Shown: positions 40,844 to 63,917 of the stretch, in pieces
How positions within the stretch are numbered: the first letter of the stretch is position 1
Layout of the letters: the number at the start of each line of letters is the position of its first letter
NCBI GenBank assembly: GCA_024305405.1
Contig: JAKNDB010000109.1
Location: 4,836,001-4,900,000, forward strand
Reading direction: 5' to 3'
Length of the DNA stretch: 64,000 nt
DNA from: Dirofilaria immitis
Lineage: Eukaryota > Nematoda > Chromadorea > Rhabditida > Onchocercidae
Notes under the pieces: generated by a model
What the model was told of the DNA's origin: nothing
The model's database searches: none
What the model saw: only the letters and a program-made list of their open reading frames with translations
Program-made: the position numbers and the translations under genes

Positions 40844-42454
40844 ATGAATTTCAGACATTTGGTATCTCTAAATGTTTGGGTTGTATTAATGATGCGATTT
40901 TCTTATGCAGAACATAAGTGTGTTTGGGTACACGGCACCGTACGTTGTCATAGGGATCCTTCAAGAAATTTAAATGTTGAAGTACGAGTTTATGATCGAG
41001 ATGGGCTATCAATTGCCAAGATTGTTGATCCTGATGATTTAATGGGGTTAGTTGACAAGATTCTTGCATTTTTGCTTTAACAGGTTCAACACGAGAATTT
41101 TCCAAACACGTTCGTTCAAGCAACATTAATGCTGGTATTTTTGGCAAGAATCACTTGCAAAAGCATATATGTTAGTTAGTGGTACGTTTTATTTTTAAAG
41201 CTTTTTTCGACTTACTCTGCTTGGTAAACTTATCTTGCTATGCTTTCACCACAACTTTGAAGCCGCCATTTGCTTTTTATTACTTATTTTAAAAAATATT
41301 AAGAAATAGTCAAACTGTGAAATTACTAGAGATGAGCAAGTTTGTGTGAGGTCGTATAAGAAAGATTGCGCAGAGCATCGTCGACTTTTTGTAGTTCTCG
41401 CTAGTACAATTCGGGGTGAAATAAAGCAATCTGTGCGCTTCACTGGGAATTTGTTATCGACGCACACATTAAATTGTGAGTTGCATTGGTGATTGTGTTG
41501 TTGGTATATTGAGTTTTTTTGAGGTCTCCTTTCGTTTATCTGAATAATATCTGTTGCTGTTGCATGGAATTAAATACTTGAACTTTCTTTCGTTTCTGCA
41601 AATTTCATTTTCTAATGGTACTAAGAATCAATGAATTGTCTAAAGTCTCTCTCCCTCTCCCTCTTTCAAGCTAGAAGTTTTAACTTTCAGAATATTTGTA
41701 TATGGAACCTTTTGTTTTATCCTTAAAAAGATTAATTGCTTTCATCAAATTATTTTCATTAAACAAACTTATTAACTTGAGAAAGAAGTCAATAAATTTG
41801 TTTGTTTATATTACATTCTCATCTGATGAAAAAAGGCCTATTACGATGGGAACAATTGACTGCGGAAATCGTGATTCTTTTCGCTAACGTCAAAAACATC
41901 TTCAAAAAATATAAGGCATCCATTGATGTTTGCTCAGAAAAATTGCTGCTCAGTTTTTTTGATTTGCGATTTCTAATTATCAAGTTGAGAATAAGTGCAC
42001 CTTTAACATATCAGCATACCGCTTCCACTTCTTGAAGATGTTGCGGTGTTTTACTACGTTGTGTTTGCAATAATGATCTTAAATAAACTTCAAATAAAAT
42101 TCATCCGGCATGAATTTATGATAATACAGCCATTGAAGTTATGAATACAAAAAAATTTCACTTATATTTCTTTTCTTTTAATAAATTTAGTTTTATTTAT
42201 TTAGAGTGACATTCACAAACGAAGACGGCTCGTTCCAGTTAGATGGATGTGGTGAAGATATTGATTGGATTCCTGGTATCCCGAACAATCCAGAACCCTA
42301 TTTACAAATTTTACATTATTGCAAAAGCGAAATGGGTGAAATTATAAGGCTTCCACCATTTAGAACTTTTGTGCCAAAGACGTATGAAATGGGTATAATT
42401 AATCTCGATTCACCGATTCAAATCTCACTTGCAAAAACAATACTGAGTAAATAA
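40844..42454 (+). CDS. Transthyretin-like family protein (secreted)
   Basis: Two exons, 40,844-41,046 and 42,205-42,454, joined through a 1158-base intron (GGG|GTTAGT ... TTATTTAG|A) that splits a Gly codon; 150 residues. Residues 1-22 look like a signal peptide (hydrophobic core LVSLNVWVVLMM, cleavage after SYA). The mature part shows the family pattern: CVWVHGTVRC, N-VEVRVYDRD, DPDDLMG, then after the intron NEDGSFQLDG and PYLQILHYC. Cysteines lie at about 26, 35, 83 and 107. Length matches the usual 130-150. These nematode proteins share the transthyretin beta-sandwich fold, are usually secreted, and mostly lack a known function. An insertion around IPGIPNNPEP is longer than in typical members. 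The start is the first in-frame ATG giving a signal peptide. An acceptor-like TTCTTATGCAG inside exon 1 (to 40,910) leaves open a different 5' structure. Confidence 0.88.
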
Positions 42455-45657: not shown

Positions 45658-48600
45658 ATGCGAATTGGTCCATTTCTCGATCTGCAGGTTTGAGTTTGAT
45701 TGCATAACTTTCTTATTGCACTTATCCTGCTATTGACGTAAATCTTTTGCATTTCAATGCGTTGCTTGCACTATTACTGAGGTGTTAACCTTTCTATCTG
45801 AACATTCTTTAAGTCATCATTTTGCTCCAGTTTTTCACTGGTATCTTTGTATGTTGTAGGAATCGTTTTGCATGTCTGTTATTATCATTTCAGTACACCA
45901 GAATTATGAACTAAAGATCAGGAAGCTTTTGTATTCTTTGTATATGTTTTTGCAAATATTTTACTTAGTCGCTCATTTAATTTTAGATTTTGAAGAATAA
46001 TTTTTACTGCACTTACAAATAAGTTTGCGTTGTCTCTCACCTTTGAAAAGTCACTGCCTTACTTTGTTTTCATTCAGAGATCTTTTTTTACTCATAAACA
46101 TGATTTGATTGAAGTGAAGGTGTTCGTGACAATAAAGATTTTCACTGTACCAAGTGTGATATAATCGAAAATTATTTTTGACCGCACTGCTCGATTCTGC
46201 CGGAAATGATGCATAGTGAAGGAAGTGCAAACATTATTAGCAATTTCATTCGCTCAATTTCTCAGGAATTTGTTACTCTGATATAAATAAAACCGCATTA
46301 TTTTGTTGACAACGGGGAAGTTTTTATAGAAGTTATACATTCATTTACTGAAATTATCCCTGAGCTTGACTTGGTTAATTTATTTCTCTTTTAAACCTGT
46401 GGCTTTTTCGATTTAAAGCTCGTATTTAATTGTAATATATGCGTTTTAACTTCTTTGAAAATTGTTTAAGGATTATGGAATTGGTGCTACAAACGTAACG
46501 TTTCAACAGCATAAAATAGGGCGAGAGGAACGTGCACGAATTCTTGGACGCCATATTGGTTTTCGGGGTTGTACTATATGGTTCACCGGTTTGTCTGGTG
46601 CTGGCAAAACAACAGTTGCTTTTGCAGTTGAGAAAATTTTGACACAGGTTTGCTGCTGCCGTTTAATTTTGTTGATTTTTTCAATTTACAAATCTGTCTG
46701 TGTTTTCAACGTGTTACATTTTAGCTTGGCGTTCCTGCTTACGCTCTAGATGGTGACAATGTTCGACATGGACTTTGTAGAAATCTCGGATTTTCCAAAG
46801 AAGAAAGGCGAGAAAATATTCGTCGTGTTGCTGAAGTTGCCAAATTATTCGCTGATATGGGCATTGTAGCTCTTGCTTCATTCATTAGTCCATATAAATG
46901 TGACCGAGACGATGCAAGATCTATTCATAATCAAGTAAACAATCGGTTTATGATGTATTGTTCTGAAAGTTAAACATGATTTTTGGTTATGACAAGGATT
47001 TTTATTTCCAGGACAATCTTGCCTTCTTTGAAGTATATGTGAATACACCATTGAAAATTTGTGAACTTCGCGATCCTAAGAGTAAATTTTACTTCAATTC
47101 AAACTGAACATTTTTATAATCATTCATTTTTGCTAAAATTTTTAAGGATTAAATCTATATAGAAACAAATATGTACAAATAATTTATCATGTTATAGATT
47201 TGTATAAGAAAGCACGTGCCGGAGAGCTGAAAGGATTCACAGGGATTGATAGTGTGTATGAAGCACCAGAAAAACCAGATCTTATACTTGAATCAGGCAT
47301 TGAATCTGAAGCTGAATCCGTCAGGAAAGTATTGGATTTTTATTCCAGAAGGTAACCGTAAGTTTCCTTTCAAATGAACATAAGCTTTTTAGGTAACTTC
47401 ATTTTATTACCAATAAAAAAAGAATTTCGTTTCACGCAGATGTTCCAGAAGTTCTACATACGCTTTTATGAAAAAATGAATCATTGTATTTACAGAATGT
47501 TTTGCCGGTAAAAGCTTATCAGCAGATTTCTGGGCCGCCTATACGAGAGTTATATATTGATGAAGAATCGAAAGACAAACTATTAAAGCGTGTGAACTCT
47601 CTACCAAAGGTGCAGTTGACCAAAATTGATCTGGAGTGGTTACAGGTTTCATTATTTTCTTACTTTCAGTAGTAGAAATTCATAGCTTTTATATCATATA
47701 GCAGTGTTATGCTATATGGTGTCTTTGTATTTTTAGGTATTGGCTGAAGGCTGGGCATCTCCTTTGCCTGGATTCATGCGTGAACGTCAGTACTTGCAGT
47801 GTTTGCATCACGGTCTCCTTTTGGATTTAAAAAGAAATGTTTTATCCCTGGTATATCATTGTCAGAAGATATTGAAGAAGATTCACTTTGGTCACTTAAT
47901 GAACCATTGAATCAGTCAATACCAATTGTGTTACCGATCGATGATGATACAAAAATCAAACTCATGGATGGTTGGCATTTTTTTCTACTATTTAAAGTAT
48001 TTCGTATCGAATAATTTGGCTTTGTCTGCATTATGTTTGGATTATCGAAAATATCATACTAAGATTTCTTCGTGATATATGGAACTTTTCGAGGACATTC
48101 GACCAGTCCTGAAATTGCTCTTGTGTACAACAACGAGATGGTTGCTGTTGTGAGAGATGGCGAAATATTTGAACATAGAAAAGAGGAACGAGTTGCTCGT
48201 CAATTCGGTCTTGTCGATCCTAGACATCCTGCAATAAAACAAATTTTGGAAAGTGGAAGTTGGTTGCTTGGCGGTGATGTACAGGTAGCTGTTTATGATG
48301 TATTATTGATTTCCTGTGTTTATGTAATATATTTTCAACAGTACAGTGGTTTTTTTTATTACAATTCACTGATAGTTGTCTCACTTTCCTAAAAATTAAA
48401 AATTAAAAAAAGTTTTCGAGACGCAAATATGAATCTTGAAATTCCTCCTTTTAATGAATTCAGGTATTGAAACGAATTCAGTACAACGATGGTCTGGATT
48501 GCTACAGGATGTCACCGCTAGAACTTCGAAATATTTTTGCAAAAGCTAATTGCGATGCAGTTTTTGCTTTTCAATTGCGAAATCCTATTCATAATGGACA

Positions 48601-49623
48601 TGCCCTTCTTATGCAAAATACAAGAGAGCAGTTGCTAACAAAGTACAAAAATCCCATGTTGTTACTTCACCCATTGGGTGGTTGGACAAAAGTTTGTTTT
48701 TGCGTTGTTTTGTTTTTCAATGATTATTATGATGTAGAGTTTTGATCTCTGAGAGAAATACAGATTTATTTGTTTCCTATCATGAAATTGAAAAAATTTG
48801 TAATTTTCAGGAAGACGATGTACCACTGGATGTACGCATGAAACAGTATGATGCAGTTTTATCGGAAGGTGTTTTAGATCCAAAATGGACCGTCCTTGCC
48901 ATTTTTCCTTCCCCAATGTTATATGCTGGACCGACTGAAGTGAAAATTTCTATTTTCTTTCTTTTTGATCTATTGTTTTCATATTTTTCTTTTTATAGAT
49001 TACATAGTTTCAGGTACAGTGGCATGCTAGAGCTCGATTAGCAGCTGGTGTTTCAACTTACATAGTAGGACGAGATCCTGCAGGCATTCAACATCCCGAA
49101 ACTGGTGATTATTTGTATGATCCGACGCATGGATCGAAAGTTAGCATTAATTATTACAATCAGTTATTAATAATTAGCTCAATTCTGACACGTTTGAGAG
49201 GAGCAGTATGTAAGTCGTGGTAAATTCGAATTTATGAATTATTGATGAGTTTTTAAGGTATTATCTATGGCTCCCGGTTTACCCAATTTGGATGTGATAC
49301 TGTATCGGGTAGCTGCATATGATAAAACGAAAAACAAAATGGCTTTTTTGATCCTTCACGAAGTGATGATTTCAAATTTATAAGTGGGACGAAAATGAGA
49401 TCGTATGCTCGTGATGGTATTGAACCACCAGAGGGTTTCATGACTCCCAAGGCTTGGAAGGTAATTGTAGAATTTGTGAATATGTTTTTGCCTTTCATAT
49501 ACTGCTTTTTGGAATCACAAAGATTATCATCTTTAATTCTTGCTTATTAATATTTTCAGAATATTGCAGATTCTGTCATCTTACTATCAGGAATTGGCAA
49601 CGAAGCGAAGTGGAAGTAATTAG
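45658..49623 (+). CDS. pps-1: Bifunctional PAPS synthase (APS kinase / ATP sulfurylase)
   Basis: Makes 3'-phosphoadenosine 5'-phosphosulfate from ATP and sulfate in two steps, supplying sulfotransferases; eukaryotic animal-type fusion. Exons: 45658-45687, 46471-46647, 46725-46934, 47012-47081, 47198-47351, 47496-47645, 47737-47970, 48094-48284, 48464-48691, 48811-48939, 49014-49139, 49258-49460, 49570-49623. About 652 residues, the size I recall for the C. elegans protein. Kinase first: P-loop GLSGAGKT (residues 50-57), [27 protein letters not shown]. Then ATP sulfurylase: [28 protein letters not shown], the HxGH motif in [10 protein letters not shown] (about 443-452), [27 protein letters not shown] and GRDPAG. 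Exon 1 ([10 protein letters not shown]) is inferred from an in-phase CAG|GTTTGA donor and is less certain. One base is missing at each of 47,351-47,352, 47,829-47,833 and 49,344-49,349; otherwise all junctions are canonical and in phase. The symbol follows the C. elegans orthologue. Confidence 0.93.
47351..47352 (+). other. One-base deficit at the exon 5 donor of PAPS synthase
   Basis: Canonical splicing AGAAG|GTAACC to TTTACAG|AATG shifts the frame by one. The conserved spacing (VLD...LP) calls for one more base, for example a third G. A consensus GTAAGT seven bases further on would include an in-frame stop. Confidence 0.65.
47829..47833 (+). other. One-base deficit in PAPS synthase exon 7
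   Basis: An A5 run. The protein reads LLLDLK up to here and continues correctly (KKCFIPG..., then [10 protein letters not shown]) only in the frame reached if the run had six A. No intron fits. Confidence 0.8.
49344..49349 (+). other. One-base deficit in PAPS synthase exon 12
   Basis: A T6 run. Upstream reads [14 protein letters not shown]; the conserved FISGTKMR and PPEGFM stretch follows only in the frame reached with seven T. Confidence 0.8.
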
Positions 49624-52191: not shown

Positions 52192-52422
52192 TTATTATTC
52201 ATTCTTATAAAAATAGCAGTCTAATATATTTCTCTCTGTTATTATTTATTATTCATTCTTATAAAAATAGCAACTTTCGTTTCCGGGAAGCTGCCCATCA
52301 AGGCGTATTTACCGCCGACGGAACGCTAGTTGGTATCGTTTACGGTCAGAACTAGGGCGGTATCTGATCGACTTCGAACCTCTGACTTTCGTTCTTGATT
52401 TAATATATTGCTCTCTGTTATT
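52192..52422. repeat. Duplicated flanks around an rDNA fragment
   Basis: A 27-base sequence (52,192-52,218) recurs identically at 52,246-52,272. A 22-base sequence (52,222-52,243) recurs with one mismatch at 52,401-52,422. The order is A-B-A-[18S fragment]-B: a tandem copy of a roughly 54-base target with the rDNA piece between its two halves. Confidence 0.9.
52273..52400 (-). pseudogene. 18S rRNA gene fragment (nuclear pseudogene)
   Basis: The minus strand reads a core 18S rRNA segment: AATCAAGAACGAAAGTCAGA at its start, then GGTTCGAAG, GATCAGATACCGCCCTAGTT, CCGTAAACGAT, CCGTCGGCGG and AGCTTCCCGGAAACGAAAG. It covers only about 128 bases of an approximately 1.8-kb gene and carries changes at normally invariant sites (GAAGTCGATC where GAAGGCGATC is expected). 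It is therefore an inserted fragment, not a working rRNA gene. Its sharp edges coincide with the duplicated flanks. Confidence 0.92.
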
Positions 52423-63712: not shown

Positions 63713-63917
63713 CTACTATTATTATCAATTATTAATACTATTATTATTATCAATTATTATTATTAATTATTATTATTAATTACTATTATTACTATTATTA
63801 TTATCATTTATTATTATTAATTATTATTATTATCAATTATTGTTATTAATTATTATTATTAATAATTATTATTATTAATTATTATTACTAATTATTATTA
63901 TTTATTATTATTGTTAT
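63713..63917. repeat. (ATT)n trinucleotide repeat
   Basis: About 205 bases of ATT/AAT triplets with scattered ACT, ATC and GTT variants. It is a long, moderately decayed microsatellite near the window end. Confidence 0.92.

What the first reader, a model, noticed from the sequence alone, without database searches (positions are those of the whole stretch)
52192..52422. 18S rDNA splinter inserted in a duplicated target
A 128-bp antisense piece of 18S rRNA gene sits between two half-copies of a 54-base flank (A-B-A-[18S]-B). This is not a normal retrotransposition footprint: there is no poly-A, and the duplication is larger than a usual target-site duplication. It looks like break repair that copied a foreign template while duplicating the ends. 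The few substitutions suggest it is not ancient.
Basis: partly seen in the sequence, partly recalled or inferred. Interest (0 to 1): 0.75.

Follow-up and report, generated by a model that had tools for sequence, protein, structure and literature searches.

The report
Ribosomal DNA fragment captured during repair
A 128-base scrap of a filarial worm's own ribosomal DNA sits inside a small local duplication, most likely patched in when a broken chromosome was repaired, and it is one of about a hundred such scraps found in this genome.

Summary
Window 52273-52400 is an antisense 18S piece; 52272-52400 has 2 mismatches in 129 to the genome's own 18S. It sits inside the second copy of a 54-base tandem duplication, A-B-A-[18S]-B. 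Its flanks match only themselves. It is not unique. Merged genome searches give 98 18S-derived loci besides the full gene, this one included, on 23 contigs, a lower bound. Pieces of ITS, IGS and 28S occur elsewhere too.

Some pieces cross the 18S/ITS1 border or join scrambled rDNA segments, there is no A-tail signal, and mutual similarity is close to that of independent captures. So the source is most likely rDNA, not mature rRNA and not a spreading repeat. Four of 67 sites, this one included, have 19-52 bp direct repeats near the insert. Best reading: an rDNA fragment was captured at a double-strand break by end joining. Whether the duplication came first or formed in the same event is unresolved, because no relative is held for an empty-site test. 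This is a new member of a known kind; the genome-wide record is the more interesting object.

The parts
52192..52218 (+). A1: first copy of the left half of the duplicated flank, 27 bases
   Evidence: identical to A2
52219..52221 (+). GTC between A1 and B1; absent at the insertion point, so probably lost there
52222..52243 (+). B1: first copy of the right half of the duplicated flank, 22 bases
   Evidence: 21 of 22 identical to B2
52239..52257 (+). TTATTAT stutter at the joint between B1 and A2 (tandem duplication junction)
52246..52272 (+). A2: second copy of A; its last base is shared with the 18S match
   Evidence: 27 of 27 identical to A1
52273..52400 (-). antisense piece of 18S rDNA, about positions 980-1107 of the gene
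   Evidence: 127 of 129 identical (52272-52400) to the genome's own 18S at L011:7284-7412; Rfam SSU_rRNA_eukarya 95.4 bits
52401..52422 (+). B2: second copy of B, directly abutting the 18S piece

Best explanation
A double-strand break in non-coding DNA, probably with staggered ends, was closed by end joining. A loose fragment of the worm's own rDNA (128 bases of 18S) was joined into the gap with the loss of three bases, and the 54-base neighbourhood was duplicated at or near the same time by fill-in of the staggered ends or by slipping onto a TTATT microhomology. Shown here: the anatomy, the own-18S source, flanks that match only themselves, many sister pieces from every part of rDNA that was searched, and three others with flanking repeats of 19-52 bases. 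Inferred: the break, the staggering, the end-joining pathway, and that duplication and insertion belong together. No function is proposed; the sister pieces drift towards the genome's base composition like dead sequence.
For: The junctions have 1 and 0 bases of overlap, with 3 target bases missing, as expected of fragment capture by end joining. There are 98 18S-derived loci besides the full gene, this one included. Sources include ITS1/5.8S/ITS2, IGS and both ends of 28S. Some pieces cross the 18S/ITS1 border (L032, L036) and some are chimeric: L022 is SSU plus inverted ITS2, L042 is antisense LSU plus SSU. The A fraction is 0.35 after the sense 3' end against 0.37 before the 5' end in 51 single-piece sites. 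L033 (52 bp), L058 (28 bp) and L067 (19 bp, perfect and exactly abutting) carry direct repeats flanking the 18S piece. Near-junction repeats of score 18 or more: 4 of 67 sites; 0 of 1583 window positions with a 200-base gap; 3 of 1590 contiguous window positions, one of which is this very site; and 20 of 1003 positions in the locus flanks, 11 of them in one minisatellite of L035. The duplications differ at 1 of 49 bases and the 18S piece at 2 of 129, compatible with one age.
Against: The other three flanking-repeat sites (L033, L058, L067) place the insert between the two copies, as simple fill-in predicts; this site has it inside the second copy, which needs an extra step. 63 of 67 sites show no such repeat near the junctions. 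By the locus-flank control taken whole (20 of 1054; 20 of 1003) the excess is only about threefold. With a simple-sequence filter, which removes L033, it is 3 of 67 against 3 of 1054 and 2 of 1590 at score 18, and 3 of 67 against 9 of 1054 and 3 of 1590 at score 16. At L033 and L067 the flanking copies are much less diverged (50 of 52 and 19 of 19 identical) than the 18S pieces (90.7% and 89.6% identical to rDNA); if repeat and insert were equally old I would expect more differences. Detection bias and faster decay of G+C-rich sequence may explain this, untested. Divergence counts at this site are too small to prove one event.
Confidence: 0.62

Rival explanations
1. Two unrelated steps: a 54-base tandem duplication arose first by slippage or break repair, and later an rDNA fragment was captured by blunt end joining inside its second copy.
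For: Any insertion into a second copy gives A-B-A-[18S]-B automatically. The B1/A2 joint has a TTATT microhomology and stutter that fit slippage in this AT-rich stretch. The 18S junctions themselves need no duplication. Straddling duplications exist in the background: 2 of 1590 window positions besides this site, and 9 of 1003 locus-flank positions outside one minisatellite.
Against: It needs two rare events within 54 bases. The duplicate copies are no older than the 18S piece as far as 1 of 49 against 2 of 129 differences can tell. Other rDNA pieces also sit at duplicated flanks more often than controls.
Confidence: 0.33
2. Retrotransposition of rRNA by a non-LTR element's machinery.
For: Direct repeats flank a minority of pieces.
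Against: Pieces include ITS and IGS, some cross the mature 18S end, and some join sense and antisense segments. No A-tail signal over 51 sites, though 2 of 51 (L023, L036) are A-rich there. Most examined sites lack target-site duplications. A precursor RNA is not formally excluded for pieces within the transcribed unit.
Confidence: 0.03
3. A dispersed repeat family (mobile element) that happens to carry 18S sequence.
For: Many pieces in the genome; L025 and L026 are near-identical copies of each other, and L047 and L083 are closer to each other than to the rDNA. Pieces share more derived bases than chance.
Against: Pieces come from every part of rDNA searched, with different ends; this site's flanks match only themselves; mutual identity of 18S pieces (0.855) is near the star expectation (0.834), and 3 of 259 overlapping 18S pairs are closer to each other than to the rDNA.
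Confidence: 0.02

Closest known systems
Capture of rDNA, mtDNA and transposon fragments at double-strand breaks in yeast (PMC10802722, PMC11724301; passages read)
   Same: Short own-genome fragments, rDNA among them, inserted at breaks; some inserts made of two pieces, direct or inverted; capture by end joining proposed
   Different: Here they are natural, inherited insertions in a worm genome; the break and the pathway are inferred, not induced
Diverged, rearranged rDNA fragments scattered over the human genome (PMC8954558; abstract and passages read)
   Same: Dispersed, rearranged pieces of rDNA units; their origin is there called not clear, with break-prone rDNA as one suggestion
   Different: Here the genome is 86.7 Mb, and junctions and target duplications were examined; no small-RNA role was tested
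Small tandem duplications at staggered breaks (CST/Pol alpha-primase, PMC8355091; cNHEJ at protruding ends, PMC5730883; passages read). Rice natural insertions (Vaughn and Bennetzen 2014) known only through citations in these papers (not held)
   Same: Short direct duplication at a break, explained by fill-in of protruding ends
   Different: The rDNA filler lies inside the second copy rather than between the two copies
Numt-mediated double-strand break repair in primates (PMC2567098; search listing only)
   Same: Filler DNA from a high-copy source recorded in genomes over evolutionary time
   Different: Source is nuclear rDNA; COX1-like mitochondrial pieces also occur in this genome

Membership tests
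Dispersed rDNA fragments | Sequence derived from the species' own rDNA, outside the array | tested here: met
   127 of 129 bases match the own 18S; the locus is on contig C60, the full gene on C3
Dispersed rDNA fragments | Independent pieces rather than one spreading repeat | tested here: met
   Varied ends; near-star relationship among the fetched pieces; this site's flanks match only themselves
Filler capture by end joining at a double-strand break | Little junction microhomology and small target loss | tested here: met
   1 and 0 bases of overlap, GTC missing, assuming GTC stood in the empty site
Filler capture by end joining at a double-strand break | Known empty site | not testable with these tools
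   No relative of this genome is held
Filler capture by end joining at a double-strand break | Dependence on Ku/Lig4 or Pol theta | not testable with these tools
   Needs genetics
Staggered-break tandem duplication with filler | Duplicated target near the junction | tested here: met
   54-base duplication; similar repeats at L033, L058, L067
Staggered-break tandem duplication with filler | Filler lies between the two copies | tested here: not met
   The 18S piece lies inside the second copy
Non-LTR retrotransposition of RNA | 3' A-tail and short target-site duplication | tested here: not met
   No A-tail signal over 51 sites, 2 of them A-rich; no simple target-site duplication here

The most novel reading that the evidence does not exclude
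This filarial genome keeps a dense and still growing fossil record of rDNA-fragment capture: at least 98 18S-derived loci besides the full gene, plus pieces of spacers and 28S, in 87 Mb, some as young as 0-2% divergence. The source profile is uneven (more first-look candidates per kb near the 18S 3' end, ITS and 28S 5' end than in the 28S 3' part), and a minority have 19-54 bp target duplications. It would let break repair, rDNA fragility and the neutral mutation spectrum of a parasite be read from sequence alone, because each insert's starting sequence is known.
Probability: 0.5. Interest if true: 0.55.

Novelty: new member of a known kind. Interest (0 to 1): 0.36.

Why it matters
By itself the site is one repair scar. 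Together, the scars give a set of roughly dated insertions whose original sequence is known (own rDNA). That would allow the germline mutation spectrum and the style of break repair in a filarial worm to be estimated without experiments. It also warns that PCR or metabarcoding with 18S or ITS primers in such worms could pick up nuclear fragments outside the array.

Tried and rejected
Rfam scan of the whole window at gathering thresholds listed nothing, although the 18S piece scores 95.4 bits in a short scan: a filter effect, not absence. Retrotransposition and a mobile repeat family were tested and judged unlikely. A first flank test on 28 sites was superseded by that on 67. A second rDNA match in the window at 63713-63757 (80% over 45 bases, E 0.002) was not followed and may be chance. 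The COX1 search rang only at short stretches, most with stops by the standard code, so no mitochondrial contig was available and capture of mtDNA could not be counted. Species: both pan-filarial DIDR primers match exactly (primers and product sizes then seen in PMC2857864), but the 526 bases between their outer ends (worked out) equal none of the six listed sizes, so I do not name the species. Excess sharing of derived bases between pieces (567 against 122 expected in 18S pairs, 68 of them in the duplicated pair L025/L026; 72 against 12 in ITS) was not explained in detail; older states of the master gene or mutation hot spots are likely. Papers: searches gave listings; passages seen. I saw no title or abstract start on dispersed rDNA fragments in filariae among the rows listed (20 of 40; 15 of 134; 10 of 85), which is no proof of absence.

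Full report
What is there. Window 52192-52422 reads A-B-A-[18S]-B. The A copies (27 bases) are identical and 54 bases apart; the B copies (22 bases) differ at one base. The piece between A2 and B2 matches the genome's own 18S gene in antisense over 52272-52400 with two mismatches in 129. The own gene is complete on contig C3, with 5.8S and parts of 28S beside it. With the insert taken out, the longest exact repeat in the neighbourhood is 26 bases, while 2000 dinucleotide shuffles never exceed 15. Three bases (GTC) that stand between A1 and B1 are missing at the insertion point; the left junction has one base of overlap and the right none. The flanks on both sides match only themselves in 86.7 Mb. 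That tool skips very common words, so this is evidence of low copy number, not proof. The piece lies about 3 kb beyond the last matched exon of a gene whose open stretches at 46.5-49.0 kb hit APS kinase, PUA-like and ATP-sulfurylase families, that is a PAPS synthase gene (5 of 8 stretches tested hit a family, 4 of them here; the gene name and the non-coding setting are my reading).

Organism. Both pan-filarial ITS2 primers match the rDNA unit exactly, and these primers are described for Dirofilaria, Brugia and Acanthocheilonema species in PMC2857864 (passages). So the genome is most likely filarial; the species stays open.

It is one of many. I searched the genome with 18S as a whole and in thirds (48, 42, 42 and 41 rows). 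I left out 59 rows of the thirds that repeat or extend rows already listed and merged the remaining 114 pieces within 2 kb. This gives 99 loci on 23 contigs, one of them the full gene and one this site; median length of the best piece 164 bases; best identities 69-100%. It is a lower bound: one search scored 40 of 140 candidates and one search scored 40 of 81. The list includes two long partial rDNA stretches (C10:47902 and C6:1213978) that may be parts of true or broken arrays. ITS1-5.8S-ITS2 gave 46 matches (40 of 159 candidates scored), the 5' end of 28S 41 matches (40 of 52), the 3' part of 28S 19 matches (18 of 18), and a spacer stretch 122 matches (40 of 91), most of them to a minisatellite and several near contig ends. 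Each list includes the true gene. Two stretches of 672 and 699 bases from this site's flanks gave only themselves.

Source is DNA. Some pieces run from 18S into ITS1 (L032, L036); several join distant or opposite rDNA segments, for example L022 (18S plus inverted ITS2), L030 (18S next to 28S without the spacer), L042 (antisense 28S plus 18S) and L021 (two parts of 18S). In 51 single-piece sites the A fraction of the 15 bases after the sense 3' end is 0.35 against 0.37 before the 5' end; 2 of 51 are A-rich after the 3' end. Mature rRNA and poly-A retrotransposition are therefore poor explanations; a precursor RNA is not formally excluded for pieces within the transcribed unit.

Not a spreading repeat. 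Among 259 overlapping 18S pairs of fetched pieces mutual identity averages 0.855 against 0.834 for a star from the rDNA; 3 pairs are closer to each other than to the rDNA, among them the duplicated locus L025/L026 and L047/L083. For ITS it is 0 of 47 pairs, 0.886 against 0.870. Pieces share more derived bases than chance (567 against 122 in 18S, 72 against 12 in ITS), which I ascribe to change in the master gene and mutation hot spots without having tested it.

Flank geometry. I compared 150 bases on each side of 67 sites: L021-L086 without L046 (same place as L021), plus L001 and L006; the three longest rDNA stretches (L018-L020) were left out. These are the fetched 18S and ITS sites, picked mainly by match strength, not all loci. 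Score 18 or more: 5 of 67, against 0.14% of 4422 mismatched flank pairs. One (L069) lies about 90-100 bases from both junctions in simple sequence. The other four are near the junctions: L033 (52 bases), L058 (28 bases), L067 (19 bases, perfect, exactly abutting) and this site. The proper control for pre-existing tandem duplications is contiguous sequence: 3 of 1590 window positions and 20 of 1054 positions in locus flanks pass the same test. A recheck shows that one of the 3 window positions is this site itself, and that with neighbouring rDNA pieces left out 20 of 1003 flank positions remain, 11 of them in one minisatellite in L035. So the excess is about threefold to manyfold by control. 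With a simple-sequence filter, which removes L033 because long repeats score low in it, it is 3 of 67 against 2 of 1590 and 3 of 1054 at score 18, and 3 of 67 against 3 of 1590 and 9 of 1054 at score 16. Exact short repeats of 7 bases or more at the junctions occur in 4 of 52 sites of at least 85% identity against 0.24 expected; two of these four are AT runs (with flanks). So target duplication accompanies a minority. In the other three cases the piece lies between the copies; seen by eye, none has the extra half copy found here. At L033 and L067 the copies are less diverged than the 18S piece would suggest (50 of 52 and 19 of 19 identical against 90.7% and 89.6%), which either reflects detection bias and faster decay of G+C-rich DNA or speaks against equal age; I did not resolve this.

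Age. The two mismatches in this piece are both G/C to A/T. Over 25 18S pieces of at least 88% identity there are 255 substitutions in 5117 bases; G/C changes to A/T at 5.9% and A/T to G/C at 2.8%, predicting an equilibrium G+C of 0.32, close to the window's own values, mostly 0.27-0.38 per kb. The pieces thus decay like neutral sequence. This one is among the younger: 19 of 99 loci (the full gene included) are at 97% or more.

Mechanism. Capture of an rDNA fragment by end joining explains the piece; PMC10802722 (passages) reports 2 of 8 insertions in wild-type yeast from rDNA, and mostly rDNA among genome-derived inserts in aged cells. Fill-in of staggered ends explains short duplications at breaks (PMC8355091 and PMC5730883, passages). 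The special feature here, the insert inside the second copy, needs either a second step or a loose 27-base A fragment or template switch. One difference in 49 duplicated bases and two in 129 inserted bases fit one age but do not prove it. I put the single-event or near-simultaneous reading at about two in three.

Verdict. The more interesting object is the genome-wide set.

Noticed in passing
G000:C9:6515, C34:10620, C12:9428, C6:25315 and C6:1741239, C25:12597, C51:19594, C11:71: Sequences related to the first 320 bases of the tested rDNA spacer stretch lie near contig ends, as if spacer and subtelomere share a repeat (contig lengths were seen for some of these contigs only).
   Followed up: no
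G000:C17:8986k, C17:1587k, C21:253k, C4:163k, C18:1692k, C63:2245k: A spacer segment of about 80 bases (query 413-492) recurs as minisatellite arrays at several places.
   Followed up: no
G000:C64:1211108, C26:1610144, C26:881535, C58:519462-520413: Short COX1-like stretches in nuclear contigs, most with stops by the standard code, perhaps nuclear copies of mitochondrial DNA; no complete COX1 listed.
   Followed up: no
L011 and call tables: First-look candidates per kb differ along the rDNA: about 66, 63 and 134 for the thirds of 18S, 156 for ITS, 131 for the 28S 5' end, 23 for the 28S 3' part. Crude, but it hints at an uneven source of fragments.
   Followed up: partly
L025 (C10:1976066) and L026 (C10:1737665): Two copies of one composite rDNA piece in opposite orientation about 238 kb apart, 99.5% alike over 570 bases though each is about 88% like the rDNA: a later segmental copy.
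   Followed up: partly
window 46459-49038: Open stretches matching APS kinase, PUA-like and ATP-sulfurylase families, a PAPS synthase gene upstream of the site; a transthyretin-like (TTR-52) stretch at 42191-42451.
   Followed up: partly
L035:2490-3090: A diverged minisatellite array beside an rDNA piece, seen in the control test.
   Followed up: no
window 63713-63757: Weak match (80% over 45 bases, E 0.002) to the rDNA unit, perhaps chance.
   Followed up: no
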